From a virus, in the IMG/VR virus record IMGVR_UViG_3300020472_000184, positions 1 through 22,753 of that record: a DNA stretch of 22,753 nucleotides; one strand, written 5' to 3'. Positions 246 to 14,991 of this stretch are shown piece by piece (position 1 is the stretch's first letter; each line of letters starts with the position of its first letter). A model generated the notes under the pieces. The model was not told the DNA's origin and did no database searches. It was given only the letters and a program-made list of their open reading frames with translations. A program made the translations under genes and the position numbers.

Positions 246-274
246 GGGGGAGCACCTCAGAGTCGGACTCCCCT
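246..274 (+). terminator. GC-rich hairpin between the small upstream gene and the capsid gene
   Basis: GGGGAG at 247-252 can pair with CTCCCC at 268-273, and an alternative small hairpin GAGTC-G-GACTC lies inside it. The run after the stem (TTTCATT) is only weakly T-rich, so this is either a leaky intrinsic terminator or an RNA-processing/regulatory stem that sets capsid mRNA level. It sits just after the stop at 240. Confidence 0.35.
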
Positions 275-311
275 TTCATTGGCATTAGCCCAGTACGCTG
301 GATACCTTTTG

Positions 312-323
312 CCGTCTAGACGG
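312..323. repeat. 12-bp perfect palindrome CCGTCTAGACGG in capsid leader
   Basis: CCGTCTAGACGG equals its own reverse complement. It lies 73 bases before the capsid start codon, in a 156-base stretch (241-396) with no gene. A second inverted pair, AAATTG…CAATTT, follows at about 340-356. A role as operator, RNA processing stem or promoter element is possible; nothing further is recognised. Confidence 0.4.
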
Positions 324-396
324 TGGGAAAGACCACAAACAAATTGATCAACAATTTCAGCTGAGAACCGTAACTAATACAAACACTTTAATTTAA

Positions 397-1423: not shown

Positions 1424-1804
1424 ATGGCAAAAGCATCACGTCTTACAGGTGTGGCTGGTCTTACTAGCGACACTTGGTACCCACGACCACCAGTTGAATG
1501 GGGTCGCGCAGGTGGGGCTGTTGCTACTGTAACTGTTGGTACTGCCACTGGTGAAAATGGAACCGGTGGAGGTACTGATGGTGCTGTAGCTGATAAGGCT
1601 ACCACAACTGACGGTGGTGGTTCAGGTCTCGTAGTAGATCTAACCATTGCTTCAAACGTATGCTCAGCTATTGCAGTAGATGCCGCTGCTGGTAGTGATG
1701 GAGATGGTTATCGCATTGGCGATGCTGTCACTATTGCTACTGGTGATTCAGGCACTACAACTGCTGTAGTAGGATACGTTGCAACACTAGAATATGAGAA
1801 CTAA
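1424..1804 (+). CDS. Small structural-type protein of unknown function
   Basis: 126 residues, preceded by a strong purine-rich ribosome binding site (GGGAGGGG, 1411-1418). The composition is rich in Gly, Thr, Val and Ala with little charge, as expected of a beta-rich virion protein. The C-terminal half has a DGDGYRIGDAVTIATGD segment resembling the short beta motif (GxGYxxGDxVxI) seen in several phage structural proteins. It begins near a WYPRPPVEWGR aromatic/proline patch. Sitting between capsid and tail tube genes, it may decorate the capsid or serve in head completion, but this is inferred from position only. I do not recognise a named family. Confidence 0.7.
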   Translation: MAKASRLTGVAGLTSDTWYPRPPVEWGRAGGAVATVTVGTATGENGTGGGTDGAVADKATTTDGGGSGLVVDLTIASNVCSAIAVDAAAGSDGDGYRIGDAVTIATGDSGTTTAVVGYVATLEYEN

Positions 1805-2094: not shown

Positions 2095-2715
2095 ATGCCT
2101 TTTCCTACCACTAACGCTACACAAGAATTACCTGCAGTGAACCAAATCCTGGCGTCAGTTGGTCAGGCACCTGTCACCACGCTCGATCAAACCAACCCGG
2201 ACGTTGCGATTGCTTACGATACTTTAATTCAAGTATCACGAGAAGTGCAGGCTGAAGGCTGGAGCTTTAATATTGAATACAAAGTAGAGGTAACTCCAGA
2301 CTCAGATACTAACGAGATATCTTATGCTGCTAATGTATTGCAGATGAACCTTTCCGATGGTGAAGGTTATGGTTCAAAGGCTGCTATTAGAAAGAAGGGT
2401 AAACTATATGACCGTGTTAACCACACAAATAAATGGACGAACGGTACTGTTAAACTTGACATTGTTTATTTCTATGATTGGGTAGATTTACCTATACCTA
2501 TTCAAGATTACATTACTGCAAGAGCTGCTACTATTGTATCAACTAGGATAGTAGGAGACCCAACCCAGCATAAGTTTCTATCAACTAGAGAAATGCTTGC
2601 TAGAGCAAATGCTATGGAGTACGAATGTAACCAAGGTAACTTTACCTATTTTGGACACCCTAAAGGGAATAATAACTACGTCAGCTATCAACCTTACAAA
2701 GCTTTACACCGCTAA
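2095..2715 (+). CDS. Tail tubular protein A / tail adaptor (T7 gp11-like)
   Basis: 206 residues against 196 in T7 gp11. The N-terminal pattern (VNQILASVGQAPVTTLD, then NPDVAIAYDTLIQVSREVQAEGW) is the hallmark of this family, in which a helical bundle forms the dodecameric ring joining portal to nozzle. The ATG at 2095 follows a purely A/T-rich leader after the terminator, with no Shine-Dalgarno. The gene overlaps the nozzle gene by one base (TAATG), so the two are likely co-translated, as expected for proteins that bind each other in the tail. Confidence 0.92.
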   Translation: MPFPTTNATQELPAVNQILASVGQAPVTTLDQTNPDVAIAYDTLIQVSREVQAEGWSFNIEYKVEVTPDSDTNEISYAANVLQMNLSDGEGYGSKAAIRKKGKLYDRVNHTNKWTNGTVKLDIVYFYDWVDLPIPIQDYITARAATIVSTRIVGDPTQHKFLSTREMLARANAMEYECNQGNFTYFGHPKGNNNYVSYQPYKALHR

Positions 2716-5576
2716 TGGCAAGTGTTACTCAAAGAATACCTCACTATTTAGGGGGAGTATCTAAACAATCAGATATTAAGAAGTTTCCAGGTCAAGTAAG
2801 GGAGTGTATTAATGCATACCCTGAACCAACATTTGGTCTTATTAAGAGACCTGGATTTGAATTCTTACATAGTTTAGATCAAACAACAAACGGTACAGAT
2901 TTTTCTGGTACCGATTTAGACAATGCAAAATGGTTTTACATCAATAGAGATGATGATGAAACCTATATAGGATGTATCATTAGTGGAGCCATACATATAT
3001 GGAATGGTAAAGTTGATGGTAGTGGTAACTATGTTAAATGTACAGTTAATACATCTGAAAATGGTAACGCAGGTTATGATCCTTTAGATTACCTAGATAC
3101 AACACGTGATAATTATGAAGTATTAACCGTACAAGATACTACATATATTACTAATAAAACAAAAACAGTTGCTGTTAAGGCTGCACCTGCTACAAATAAT
3201 TTAAGTAAGAAAGGTACGATACGAATTAAAGGTGTAGACTATAGTTCTAAGTATAGTGTTACAATAAAAGAAAGTGGCGGTAGTAATCAAACCTATACCC
3301 TCACAACACGAGATGTAGATTCTTACACTAGTGCATCAGATCCAGGTAGTGAGAAATTAAGTACAGATATTATATTAACTGCATTAGAAACTGGTATTAA
3401 TGCATTAACACTTGATAGTAGTTTTACTGTAACTAGATTAAAAGCTACGATTGAATTGTCTTCTAATGTAGCATTTACACTTGAATGTCAAGGCGGAGCA
3501 AGTAATGAGCTATTAACCTGCTTCCAAGATCAAGTAGAGGATTTAGCTAAACTACCTGAAGAATGTTCAGATGGTAGAGTAGTGAAAATTATCAATACTA
3601 AATCAGATCAGGATACATACTATGCAAAATTCTTTGCTGAAACTGGTACAACAGGAGCAGGTTACTGGGAAGAAACAATAGCACAGGATGTTTCAACTGG
3701 CTTAGATGATAAAACTATGCCACATGAATTACAGAATACAGCTGTAAATGTATTTAACTTCCAACCAATAGCATATACAGATAGGTTAGTAGGTGATGAT
3801 ACAACTAACGAACACCCAAGTTTTAAAGATAACACTATCCAACAAGTATTCTTTCATAACAATAGATTAGGATTCTTGACAAGTGATAATGTTTCTATGA
3901 GTCAATCTGGGCAATTTAAAAACTTTTATCATGAATCAGCTAGAGCACTTACTACTGCTGATCCTGTAGATTTAAACTGTTCAGCTGTTAGACCTGCTGT
4001 ATTACATGGTGTACTACCTACTACACAAGGTTTAATCTTATTCAGTGAGAAGTCACAGTATATTATGTACGCAGATAATGGTGTACTTACACCTCGTACT
4101 ACTGTCATACGTGGTATCTCTAACTATGAGATTGACAACAAAATAGCGCCAGTAGATAACGGTAGTACATTAACATTCTTAAGTAAGACTCCTGGCTATT
4201 CTAGAGTGTTTAGTATGGAGACACAGGGTCAAGAGAATAACCCTAACATATTAGATATCGCTAAAACAGTAGCGGAATATATACCAGATACTATAACCAG
4301 TATGGTTGCTAGTCCACAGAATGAGTTGATTGCATTACATGGTGAGACTCTATCTGATGTATTTTTCTATAGAACTTATTATGATGGTAAAGAGCTAGTA
4401 CTACAAGCTTGGTTTAAATGGACATTCCCTGGTAATGTACTGCATCTTACTGTAGATAATGATACAATGTGGGCAGTCGTTAAGTATGTAGATGCATCAA
4501 GTAGTAACAATAGATACCATTTAATTAAAACAAGTCTAACTCAAACACCAGAAAACCCTATCCTTACTACTAATGATGGTGCAAGTATTAACCCATATAT
4601 GGACATGTATGCTACAGCATCTTCTGTGACTTATGATACAGCTGGTGACTTCTCTAAATGTTACCTACCTTATGGTGATATAGCTAATGCAACACCTGTT
4701 CTCATTTTAAAAGGTGACGCATCAGCAGGTGAAGTAGCTGGATTTACTTTAAGCCCTGACTCAGCTAAGGATGCTGTTTGGCAAGCAAGTACTGCTTACG
4801 CCGTAGGTGATGTTGTAAGTAATGATGGAGATAAAGTTTATACTTGTGATACAGCTGGTACTTCAGCAGGTTCAGGTGGGCCTACTGGTACAGGTGCTGA
4901 TATTACTGATGGTAGTGCTAGGTGGGATTACACAAGAACTGGTAGTGCTTACTTCAAAGTAGCTAATAAAGACTGGACAGTGACTGGTGAGAACGTAGCT
5001 TCTAAAGTAGTTGTAGGTTATAAGTATAACTATGATGTTACACTACCTAAAACTTACTATCAGATTGCTGAAAATACATATGATTACACATCAATTCTAA
5101 CCATTGCACGTATGAAGTTCTCTGTAGGACTATCTAGTGTGGTTGGTTTCAAAGTAAAACGTAGAGGTAGAAACACACCAAACCAGGAGTGGGACGGTGA
5201 TGGTTCAGAAACAAATTTTACTTTCAACTTTGACTATACAGATGTAAATGATCTAAAAGTAAAAGTAAATGGAGTAGAAACTACAGCATATACCATCGCA
5301 GATAAAATACTCACTATGACAGGTACGGTACCAGCTGATGGTTATAAGGTTTTATTATATACCGATACATGGTATGACATTCAAACAGTAAAAGATGCAA
5401 ATGAATACCTAGCAGATGACGTACCATTGGCAGAACAATCACTATTCACATTACCAATACATGATAAAACAGATAACTTTTCAGTTAGAGTCTTCAGTGA
5501 CTCACCATTTCCAATCTCTCTTACGTCAATGATGTGGGAAGGAAACTATTCACCACGTTATTATAGGAGGACTTAG
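2715..5576 (+). CDS. Tail tubular protein B / nozzle (T7 gp12-like) with two inserted domains
   Basis: 953 residues, ~160 longer than T7 gp12 (794). The start (RIPHYLGGVSKQSD, then a C-I-N-A-Y-P stretch and GLIKRPGFEF) and the central segment QVFFHNNRLGFLTSDNVSMS are typical nozzle sequence. The extra length is largely explained by two modules near the C-terminus. Residues ~687-742 form a WQASTAYAVGDVV…YTC…GPTGTG…W-D-Y module resembling CBM5/12-like carbohydrate-binding repeats common in phage structural proteins. Residues ~826-886 (DGSETNFTFNFDYTDVNDLK, then VETTAYT) closely match the N-terminal domain of the tail fibre encoded at 13621. The final ~65 residues return to nozzle-type sequence and end in NYSPRYYRRT. 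The protein forms the hexameric nozzle where DNA exits and fibres attach. Confidence 0.92.
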   Translation: MASVTQRIPHYLGGVSKQSDIKKFPGQVRECINAYPEPTFGLIKRPGFEFLHSLDQTTNGTDFSGTDLDNAKWFYINRDDDETYIGCIISGAIHIWNGKVDGSGNYVKCTVNTSENGNAGYDPLDYLDTTRDNYEVLTVQDTTYITNKTKTVAVKAAPATNNLSKKGTIRIKGVDYSSKYSVTIKESGGSNQTYTLTTRDVDSYTSASDPGSEKLSTDIILTALETGINALTLDSSFTVTRLKATIELSSNVAFTLECQGGASNELLTCFQDQVEDLAKLPEECSDGRVVKIINTKSDQDTYYAKFFAETGTTGAGYWEETIAQDVSTGLDDKTMPHELQNTAVNVFNFQPIAYTDRLVGDDTTNEHPSFKDNTIQQVFFHNNRLGFLTSDNVSMSQSGQFKNFYHESARALTTADPVDLNCSAVRPAVLHGVLPTTQGLILFSEKSQYIMYADNGVLTPRTTVIRGISNYEIDNKIAPVDNGSTLTFLSKTPGYSRVFSMETQGQENNPNILDIAKTVAEYIPDTITSMVASPQNELIALHGETLSDVFFYRTYYDGKELVLQAWFKWTFPGNVLHLTVDNDTMWAVVKYVDASSSNNRYHLIKTSLTQTPENPILTTNDGASINPYMDMYATASSVTYDTAGDFSKCYLPYGDIANATPVLILKGDASAGEVAGFTLSPDSAKDAVWQASTAYAVGDVVSNDGDKVYTCDTAGTSAGSGGPTGTGADITDGSARWDYTRTGSAYFKVANKDWTVTGENVASKVVVGYKYNYDVTLPKTYYQIAENTYDYTSILTIARMKFSVGLSSVVGFKVKRRGRNTPNQEWDGDGSETNFTFNFDYTDVNDLKVKVNGVETTAYTIADKILTMTGTVPADGYKVLLYTDTWYDIQTVKDANEYLADDVPLAEQSLFTLPIHDKTDNFSVRVFSDSPFPISLTSMMWEGNYSPRYYRRT

Positions 5577-13620: not shown

Positions 13621-14991
13621 ATGGCAACTACAAAAAACACATACACAGGGAATAATTCAACTACGGATTATTCATTTACATTTCCATATCTAAAACAAAC
13701 GGATATCAAGGTAACTCTTGATAACGTTGCAACTACAGCCTATACATTTCATGATGCTACAACAGTTCGATTCAATTCAGCTCCAGCCACTGACGCTGCT
13801 ATTGCTATTTATCGATCTACAGATGATAGTAATCTCGTTGCCACCTTCTACCCTGGCTCAGCTATTAGATCAAGTGATCTAAATGATAACTATACACAGA
13901 ACTTATACTCTACTCAAGAGAACACTAATGATGCTACTGAGGCTCTAGATAACTCTAGGGTCTTAGAAAGTGGTGACTATGTAAGTGCTATTACAAAGGC
14001 TAATGCAGCAGTAGCGACTGCTAACACAGCAGATACTAACGCTAGCGCTGCTGTAAGTACAGCTAACACAGCTTCAGCTTCAGCAACAAGTGCAGTTAAT
14101 ACAGCTAACACTGCAACTTCTACAGCTAACGGAGCAGTTACAACTGCTAACGCAGCTACAACTACAGCTAACGGAGCAGTTACAACTGCTAACGCAGCTA
14201 CAACTACAGCTAATGGTGCTGTTACAACTGCTAATGGAGCAGTTACAACTGCTAATGGTGCTGTAACTACAGCTAATACAGCTAATACAACAGCAGGTAA
14301 TGCTGTAACTACAGCTAACGCAGCTAATACAACAGCAGGTAATGCTGTAACTACAGCTAACGCAGCTACAGCTACAGCTAACACTGCTTCTACTAATGCA
14401 AGTGCTGCTGTTACGACTGCTAATAGTGCATCAGCTTCAGTTGCTGCTGCAGCTATTTATAAAGTAGTACCTGACTTATCTACACTAACAACTGATTACC
14501 CATTAACTGGTAATCAACCTTCACCACCAGGGCCAGATCCAAGTAATTTAGCACCTACTCCAGATGGTACTTATGTGCAGATTACTGATAGTACAGGAAT
14601 CTCATTAGCAAATGGTACTTGGGCTGGAGGTGATTTTTCTGGTTCTTCTAGTTTCCCTAATGGATTTGGTGGTAATCCCCAATTAACCTTAAGAGTAAAA
14701 GTAAGTAATGCATCCGCAGGTTCGGAAACTTATATTGCTCAAGAGTATTACGCTAATGATCCTGAAGCTAGATATGGAGAGGATAGAAAAGTAATTGTTG
14801 AAAGTAATCGAACAATTTCTGAGGACTACACCATCCAGACAACTATGAATGCTCATTCAGTTGGGCCTGTAACTCTCTCACATAATAGCACGGATCTAAC
14901 ATATAACGCTACAACATACGTCACTTCAAACTCTGCAACTGCAGGTTACACTGTAACAATCCCTGAAAACTCTACTTGGTTAATCTCTTAA
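13621..14991 (+). CDS. Tail fibre protein (T7 gp17-type N-terminus)
   Basis: 456 residues. Residues ~5-110 (YTGNNSTTDYSFTFPY, DIKVTLDNV, TTAYTF, then RSSDLNDNYTQNLYSTQE) match the N-terminal domain by which T7-like fibres attach to the tail. Residues ~125-275 form a long trimeric-type coiled coil of Ala/Thr/Asn heptads. Residues ~280-456 are beta-rich; the NRTISEDYTIQ…AHSVGPVTL and VTIPENSTWLI segments are, from memory, common in cyanophage fibre C-termini. The start is supported by AAGG at 13614-13617. The coding sequence ends one base before the next gene, a second fibre-like protein, so the distal fibre is probably assembled from several polypeptides. Confidence 0.9.
   Translation: MATTKNTYTGNNSTTDYSFTFPYLKQTDIKVTLDNVATTAYTFHDATTVRFNSAPATDAAIAIYRSTDDSNLVATFYPGSAIRSSDLNDNYTQNLYSTQENTNDATEALDNSRVLESGDYVSAITKANAAVATANTADTNASAAVSTANTASASATSAVNTANTATSTANGAVTTANAATTTANGAVTTANAATTTANGAVTTANGAVTTANGAVTTANTANTTAGNAVTTANAANTTAGNAVTTANAATATANTASTNASAAVTTANSASASVAAAAIYKVVPDLSTLTTDYPLTGNQPSPPGPDPSNLAPTPDGTYVQITDSTGISLANGTWAGGDFSGSSSFPNGFGGNPQLTLRVKVSNASAGSETYIAQEYYANDPEARYGEDRKVIVESNRTISEDYTIQTTMNAHSVGPVTLSHNSTDLTYNATTYVTSNSATAGYTVTIPENSTWLIS
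14101..14394 (+). repeat. Fourteen in-frame 21-bp repeats encoding coiled-coil heptads
   Basis: Residues 161-258 of the fibre are fourteen consecutive seven-residue units of the form TANGAVT, TANAATT or TAGNAVT. The DNA repeats with a 21-base period (ACAGCTAAC… or ACTGCTAAT…), and some neighbouring units are nearly identical at the base level, so copy number could change by slippage or recombination without breaking the frame, altering fibre length. Confidence 0.92.

What the first reader, a model, noticed from the sequence alone, without database searches (positions are those of the whole stretch)
5190..5372. Nozzle protein contains a copy of the tail fibre's N-terminal domain
Nozzle residues ~826-886 match tail-fibre residues ~8-68: S-x-T-x-[FY]-[ST]-F-x-F-x-Y, then D-[LI]-K-V, then V-x-T-T-A-Y-T. 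At the DNA level 5274-5293 and 13726-13745 agree at 17 of 20 bases. The part that anchors the fibre and the nozzle it is near thus share a module. This suggests duplication and transfer within the genome, and possibly that the two domains pack together or that the nozzle copy offers an additional attachment site.
Basis: partly seen in the sequence, partly recalled or inferred. Interest (0 to 1): 0.7.

Follow-up and report, generated by a model that had tools for sequence, protein, structure and literature searches.

The report
Fibre-anchor domain inside phage nozzle
In a group of viruses related to phage T7, the tail-tip (nozzle) protein carries an inserted copy of the small domain by which tail fibres are anchored, apparently close to where the fibres attach, which hints at an extra or reinforced docking point.

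Summary
The nozzle (2715-5576) contains a 64-residue cassette (residues 821-884, bases 5175-5366) homologous to residues 6-67 of the same phage's tail fibre. A profile built only from 97 other nozzle cassettes finds the window's fibre at E 6.6e-19. The predicted fold (pLDDT 91.9) matches the T7 gp17 N-terminus (Z 8.2-8.5).

The cassette is a clean unit: present in 98 of 112 distinct nozzles, absent from 14 with both flanks intact. By alignment it sits in the platform hairpin whose P-SCSP1u counterpart contacts the adaptor. Only the jelly-roll half of the fibre anchor was copied.

Recent duplication inside this genome is not supported: the two window copies are not sisters (AU p 0.0004 and 0.0012), and the 17-of-20 DNA match is no better than chance. 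Whether all nozzle copies share one origin stays open.

The nozzle of cyanophage A-4L shows the same fold in a solved structure, so the arrangement has a precedent. Its role as an added docking module is inferred, not shown.

The parts
2715..5576 (+). Nozzle (tail tubular protein B, T7 gp12-like), 953 aa
   Evidence: PF25675 Phage_nozzle E 2.1e-175; P-SCSP1u nozzle 8i4m_A E 1.9e-53, T7 gp12 E 3.2e-53
5175..5366 (+). Inserted fibre-anchor jelly-roll cassette, nozzle residues 821-884
   Evidence: present in 98 of 112 distinct nozzles, absent as one block in 14; fold model pLDDT 91.9 and Z 8.2-8.5 to T7 fibre N-termini
5148..5174 (+). Upstream strand of the platform hairpin that holds the cassette (residues 812-820)
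   Evidence: F812, K813 and G818 identical in 112 of 112 nozzles; alignment with empty sites
5367..5384 (+). Downstream strand of the same hairpin (residues 885-890)
   Evidence: W886 in 112 of 112 nozzles; maps to T7 gp12 about 727 and to P-SCSP1u D737 within a few residues
13621..14991 (+). Tail fibre, 456 aa
   Evidence: PF03906 E 1e-14, PHROG tail-fibre families to E 9.6e-37
13636..13821 (+). Fibre N-terminal jelly roll homologous to the nozzle cassette (fibre residues 6-67)
   Evidence: nozzle-only profile E 6.6e-19; BLASTP 20/60
13822..13977 (+). Second half of the fibre anchor (fibre residues 68-119), without counterpart in the nozzle
   Evidence: profile of this part from 70 fibres: 0 of 112 nozzles at E up to 10
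2095..2715 (+). Adaptor (tail tubular protein A, gp11-like), the presumed partner surface
   Evidence: PF17212 E 3.5e-37; P-SCSP1u adaptor 8i4m_G E 1.6e-18
4764..4940 (+). Second, rarer cassette in the nozzle (residues 684-742), CBM5/12-like
   Evidence: PF02839 E 2.8e-4, 21.3 bits, below cut-off 26.2; in 5 of 112 nozzles at this place

Best explanation
The nozzle carries a copy of the fibre-anchor jelly roll (PF03906, first half) inserted between two strands of a hairpin of its C-terminal platform domain. Shown here: homology to the fibre N-terminus, the fold of the isolated cassette (by prediction), the clean presence or absence of the unit, purifying selection on it, and that the trimer-leading half of the fibre anchor was not copied. 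Inferred: fibres gave rise to the nozzle copy, because the domain is in the fibres of relatives whose nozzles lack it; the six nozzle copies ring the adaptor-nozzle interface at the fibre-docking cleft; each acts as a tethered extra jelly roll that reinforces or orients a fibre trimer (in P-SCSP1u the third jelly roll, F3, has no hydrogen bond to the nozzle) or offers a further docking site for a receptor-binding protein.
For: Nozzle-only profile (97 cassettes, window left out) matches 66 non-nozzle ORFs, each at its very N-terminus (start residue 4-14), 7.1-9.0 kb downstream of the nozzle and never two in a locus. Pfam cut-off passed by L053. Cassette model: 7boz_b (gp17 N-terminus) Z 8.2, rmsd 1.8, 65 aligned; 8dsp_C (T7 tail fiber protein) Z 8.5, rmsd 1.8, 65 aligned. 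Empty sites in S-CBP3, S-SRP01, S-B28, S-CBP1, S-CBP4 and others. Six of the 14 cassette-less loci show a fibre copy. dN/dS 0.27 in the cassette against 0.21 in the rest of the C-terminal part, 36 pairs. P-SCSP1u platform D737 hydrogen-bonds the adaptor; D737 aligns with the first residue after the cassette. CBA120 TSP4 XD2 (7rej_A 185-251, Z 8.2) is a jelly roll that docks other spikes, and TSP2 without its own XD2 does not bind TSP4 (PMC8825819, passages).
Against: No contact, complex or mutant data. Foldseek alone gave no PDB match at E 0.001 or below (best 1.6e-3); the nozzle C-terminal model is only moderate (pLDDT 71.0, pTM 0.54). XD-type modules dock as trimers, the nozzle is a hexamer. 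The nozzle also collects other modules (CBM5/12-like and glycine-rich repeats), so an exposed loop may simply tolerate inserts. 14 of 112 nozzles do without it. No length change of the adaptor goes with the cassette.
Confidence: 0.5

Rival explanations
1. Passive decoration: the hairpin loop tolerates inserted domains, and the jelly roll stays as an exposed, mainly structural or glycan-binding knob without contact to fibres.
For: The same nozzles carry rarer inserts of CBM5/12-like and glycine-rich modules at several places, each in at most 7 of 112; the cassette can be lost as a block (14 of 112).
Against: Unlike those inserts, this one is in 98 of 112 and always at the same site; it is under purifying selection close to that of the nozzle itself; it is specifically the fibre's own anchor fold.
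Confidence: 0.27
2. Adaptor clamp: the cassette occupies a fibre-type surface of the adaptor and stabilises the 12-to-6 symmetry step, competing with rather than helping the fibres.
For: Insertion point maps to the platform residues that touch the adaptor helix bundle; adaptor fibre docks bind fibre jelly rolls F1 and F2 in P-SCSP1u.
Against: With six fibre trimers, two docks each, the 12 adaptor docks are already used in P-SCSP1u (inference). The strongest adaptor columns that differ between cassette-bearing and cassette-less phages cannot be told apart from kinship.
Confidence: 0.18
3. Recent duplication of this phage's own fibre N-terminus into its nozzle.
For: Both copies lie in one genome and share 20 of 60 residues.
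Against: Window nozzle copy is nearer to other nozzle copies (69% to L001) and the fibre to other fibres (70% to L068); pair rejected as a clade (AU p 0.0004 and 0.0012); codon identity at the chance level.
Confidence: 0.02
4. Two or more separate acquisitions: the copy of the window's small group (window, L001, L002) came from a fibre independently of the other nozzle copies.
For: Placing the window group with the fibres is not rejected (AU p 0.575, where that tree even scored 3.4 log units higher; p 0.199). Body tree needs at least 6 changes of presence, 3 forced by starred branches.
Against: All nozzle copies lie on one side of a branch with support 97/98 and 91/87 with outgroup fibres; identical insertion site in all 98.
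Confidence: 0.25
5. Chance or convergent similarity of two beta sandwiches.
For: Foldseek and VIA list other beta domains too; antibody light chains appear among the sequence hits of the cassette profile (6o89_L, E 6.4e-4).
Against: Profile E 6.6e-19 to the window fibre, 1e-20 to other fibre-position ORFs; 19 alignment columns share the same 60% consensus residue in both groups.
Confidence: 0.01

Closest known systems
T7 gp17 N-terminal domain (Pfam PF03906 Phage_T7_tail)
   Same: Sequence profile and jelly-roll fold over about 65 residues
   Different: Sits inside the nozzle, lacks the second half that leads into the trimeric shaft, and is not at a protein N-terminus
Nozzle of cyanophage A-4L (tail tubular protein B, PDB 9k09 chain U, residues 741-822)
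   Same: A nozzle with the same fold inside it: Z 9.1, rmsd 2.0, 66 aligned
   Different: A different family (Saffermanviridae), no detectable sequence relation of the nozzles (phmmer no hit) and only 0.4 bits for its domain against the cassette profile; the domain lies much farther from the C-terminus; whether it sits at the equivalent site was not established
T4 gp10 and CBA120 TSP4 XD2/XD3 domains
   Same: Jelly-roll docking modules with adjacent N and C strands; 7rej_A Z 8.2, 5iv5_A Z 5.6; act as assembly sites (PMC8825819 passages)
   Different: Work as trimers in spike or baseplate proteins; no sequence relation tested
Uncultured phage MedDCM-OCT-S28-C3 (AP013539) and marine virus protein A0A0F7LBJ1
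   Same: Public nozzle proteins with the same cassette
   Different: Annotated only as tail tubular protein B

Membership tests
PF03906 Phage_T7_tail | Curated bit-score cut-off (25.2) | tested here: inconclusive
   Window nozzle 19.3 bits, 25.1 for an 87-residue piece: just below; homologous L053 nozzle 33.9 bits: above
PF03906 Phage_T7_tail | Jelly-roll fold of the fibre N-terminus | tested here: met
   Model pLDDT 91.9; Z 8.2 to 7boz_b, 8.5 to 8dsp_C over 65 residues
PF03906 Phage_T7_tail | Full-length domain (157 positions) incl. the part leading into the fibre shaft | tested here: not met
   Only profile positions 11-67 match; second-half profile hits 0 of 112 nozzles. So: homologous to the first half, not a complete member
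PF25675 Phage_nozzle | Nozzle profile over the body | tested here: met
   E 2.1e-175, residues 1-671 in the best stretch
XD2/XD3-type docking jelly roll | Binds another receptor-binding protein through a trimer of the module | not testable with these tools
   No complex prediction or assay available
Recent intragenomic duplicate | Two window copies are each other's closest relatives | tested here: not met
   AU p 0.000418, 0.00116

The most novel reading that the evidence does not exclude
The nozzle hexamer supplies a built-in fourth jelly roll for each fibre trimer at the adaptor-nozzle cleft, so that the fibre's anchor docks like-with-like onto a copy of itself; this would fix the fibre's angle, link fibre movement directly to nozzle opening, or create six added docking sites for a second receptor-binding protein. 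L003, whose nozzle has two tandem copies, would be an extended form.
Probability: 0.25. Interest if true: 0.65.

Novelty: new variant of a known kind. Interest (0 to 1): 0.48.

Why it matters
It shows the fibre-anchor module as a unit that moves between tail proteins, not only between fibres, and at a place where fibre movement is thought to trigger opening of the nozzle. It gives a testable handle on how fibre and nozzle are coupled, with natural pairs of related phages that have or lack the cassette (for example S-B28 without and MedDCM-OCT-S28-C3 with). It also warns annotators: a T7-fibre domain hit in this group can be a nozzle.

Tried and rejected
DNA-level duplication: rejected. Recent copy from the own fibre: rejected. 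Single origin of all nozzle copies: supported by branch values but not proven, since the alternative with the window group beside the fibres is not rejected (p 0.575 and 0.199).

Survey of named phages: of 10 named records whose nozzles I compared, 1 (AP013539) has the cassette. tblastn of the window cassette with flanks: 58 places in 57 of 50,697 records at E up to 1, AP013539 the only record with two. tblastn of the L061 cassette: 92 places in 91 records, of which I saw 40 rows. tblastn of the divergent L004 cassette: no match at E 0.01. No isolated phage with the nozzle copy turned up; one that lacks similarity to these queries would be missed.

Prevalence of 98 in 112 is biased, because one of the two searches that fetched the loci used the nozzle C-terminus including the cassette, and each search kept only its best 80 of more than 500 places.

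Of 51 loci with more than 9.5 kb held downstream of the nozzle, 4 (L006, L039, L045, L122) showed no fibre copy to the cassette profile. Rows dropped: 6 truncated nozzles and the window's duplicate before the 122 complete (112 distinct) nozzles; 4 cassettes over 90 residues before the trees; three long-branched rows (S-RIP1 fibre, L062 fibre, L122 nozzle) before the second tree. Domain trees rest on 64 columns and leave many forks open.

Identity of 8i4m_M (Z 8.7, residues 2-79, P-SCSP1u complex) was not established: the sequence library shows chain G for 12 adaptor chains and e for 18 fibre chains, so I do not count it as a fibre match. The title of 7ey9_a (Z 9.2) says only 'tail proteins'. 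T7 gp12 was not among the 50 rows listed for the isolated cassette; this shows nothing either way. Adaptor co-variation was looked at and is confounded by kinship. Rfam found nothing of note in the window (2 weak matches far below cut-off).

Literature: searches brought no paper describing a fibre domain in a nozzle; most listed papers were not opened, and the A-4L structure paper is not in the library by these searches.

Full report
What is there. The window is a 22,753-base virus record with a T7-like structural block: capsid (397-1410), adaptor (2095-2715, PF17212), nozzle (2715-5576, PF25675 E 2.1e-175), internal proteins and tail fibre (13621-14991, PF03906 E 1e-14). Its nearest named nozzles are those of Synechococcus phages S-CBP3, S-SRP01, S-B28 and of the uncultured MedDCM-OCT-S28-C3.

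Check of the observation. The two segments are homologous. Direct BLASTP gives 20 of 60 identities without gaps (E 4e-10 for the pair); shuffles never came near the alignment score (105 against at most 60 in 2000). A profile of 97 nozzle cassettes from other phages, the window left out, was run on 6966 ORFs: apart from nozzles it matched 66 ORFs, all at their N-termini (start residue 4-14), all 7.1-9.0 kb downstream of the nozzle, one per locus, the window's fibre at E 6.6e-19 and the best at 1e-20. The DNA-level part of the finding does not stand: the 17-of-20 match is one of three such pairs between the genes and shuffled genes give 0 to 4.

The unit. Among 112 distinct complete nozzles (of 122, from 126 viral contigs plus the window and AP013539) the cassette fills residues 821-884 in 98 and is missing as one block in 14, with the flanking strands continuous (F812, K813, G818, W886 in all 112). 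It is the only loss of 25 or more consensus residues in the whole gene; other large insertions occur, but each in at most 7 of 112: CBM5/12-like pieces and glycine-rich modules. The most distant variant, L003, holds two tandem copies (E 1.5e-19 and 9.1e-13), and L009, a close relative of the window, has another module inserted into the cassette itself. Pairwise dN/dS is 0.27 in the cassette and 0.21 in the rest of the nozzle's C-terminal part (36 of 304 eligible pairs).

The fold. The isolated cassette is predicted with mean pLDDT 91.9. VIA-align puts labelled T7 fibre N-termini among its best matches: 8dsp_C Z 8.5 and 7boz_b Z 8.2, both 65 residues at rmsd 1.8 (labels). Foldseek on its own gave nothing at E 0.001 or below in the PDB (best 1.6e-3), but 33 such matches among predicted viral proteins, the first being a tail tubular protein B of an uncultured marine virus, most of the named others tail fibres. 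In the model of nozzle residues 600-953 (pLDDT 71.0) the cassette is again recognised (model 219-286, Z 7.8-9.5 to several fibre chains), while the body matches T7 gp12 (6r21_a, Z 9.3) and P-SCSP1u nozzle (8i4m_A, Z 9.2).

What was copied. The fibre anchor of PF03906 spans about 120 residues here. Only its first half, the jelly roll, is in the nozzle; a profile of the following 52 residues, built from 70 fibres, hits none of 112 nozzles at E up to 10. This fits a docking domain without the trimer-forming extension.

Where it sits. The insertion point falls at T7 gp12 residues 725-727, in the C-terminal platform as described for T7 (PMC6702177, passages). In the P-SCSP1u nozzle the aligned place is D737, counted by hand from the alignment of the S-CBP3 nozzle (uncertain by two or three residues because of small gaps; the same count puts an arginine at 766, as the paper has it). 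That paper reports D737 and R766 of the platform binding the adaptor, and the fibre's helical bundles binding adaptor and nozzle platform; the third fibre jelly roll, F3, makes no hydrogen bond with the nozzle (PMC10575957, section on interactions read in full). So the cassette is most likely at or near the fibre-docking cleft. This is inference from alignment, not a structure.

Origin. In a tree of 40 nozzle and 35 fibre domains the two kinds fall on either side of one branch (97/98; 91/87 after adding nine fibres of other phages and dropping three long-branched rows). The window's own two copies as a pair are rejected (p 0.0004, 0.0012). But a tree in which the window's small group joins the fibres is not rejected (p 0.575, 0.199), so a second acquisition remains possible. 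On a tree of the nozzle body (57 rows, 45 with and 12 without) presence changes at least 6 times, 3 of them forced by starred branches. Named cyanophages outside the group lack the cassette but have the fibre copy, which makes fibre-to-nozzle the likelier direction.

Precedent. VIA-align also matched chain U of 9k09 (Z 9.1, residues 741-822). Its sequence is identical over 1015 residues to the tail tubular protein B of Anabaena phage A-4L. The A-4L nozzle has no detectable sequence relation to this one, and its domain scores only 0.4 bits against the cassette profile. A nozzle with this fold in it is therefore already in a solved structure, from a different family; I found no paper that discusses it.

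How it most likely works. Jelly rolls of this type serve as docking modules elsewhere: TSP4 of phage CBA120 binds other tailspikes through XD2 and XD3, and TSP2 lacking its own XD2 fails to bind (PMC8825819, passages); the cassette resembles TSP4 residues 185-251 at Z 8.2. By analogy the nozzle copies would give each of six fibre positions an added jelly roll that strengthens or orients fibre docking, or would hold a further protein. I give this about even odds; passive decoration and an adaptor clamp are the main rivals.

Verdict. A real, ordinary-looking domain in an unusual protein, known fold, new context for the T7-like nozzles examined; the recent-duplication story is wrong, the shared-module story is right.

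Noticed in passing
window 252-339: Non-coding stretch upstream of the capsid gene with 91-94% DNA identity to Prochlorococcus podoviruses P-SSP6, 9515-10a, NATL2A-133 and P-SCSP-R27W, unlike the rest of the window; no Rfam match; folding of 225-350 only mildly better than shuffles (z -1.6).
   Followed up: partly
window 4764-4940 (nozzle residues 684-742): CBM5/12-like module in the nozzle, in 5 of 112 nozzles at this place; similar pieces at about residues 111-120 in L032, L035 and L003.
   Followed up: partly
L003 937-4767: Nozzle with two tandem copies of the fibre-like cassette and further CBM5/12-like inserts, 1277 residues in the open frame.
   Followed up: yes
L009 7478-10972: Nozzle of a close relative (93% in the best segment) with extra glycine-rich modules at several places, one inside the cassette.
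   Followed up: partly
window 1424-1804: Small 126-residue protein after the capsid gene that looks by eye like the same glycine-rich module found as nozzle inserts in relatives; no PHROG match.
   Followed up: no
window 13977-14384: Alanine- and threonine-rich repeats in the fibre shaft, weak Alanine_zipper match.
   Followed up: no
L140 29973-33020 (Anabaena phage A-4L nozzle): Solved nozzle (9k09_U) with a fibre-anchor-like fold at residues 741-822.
   Followed up: partly
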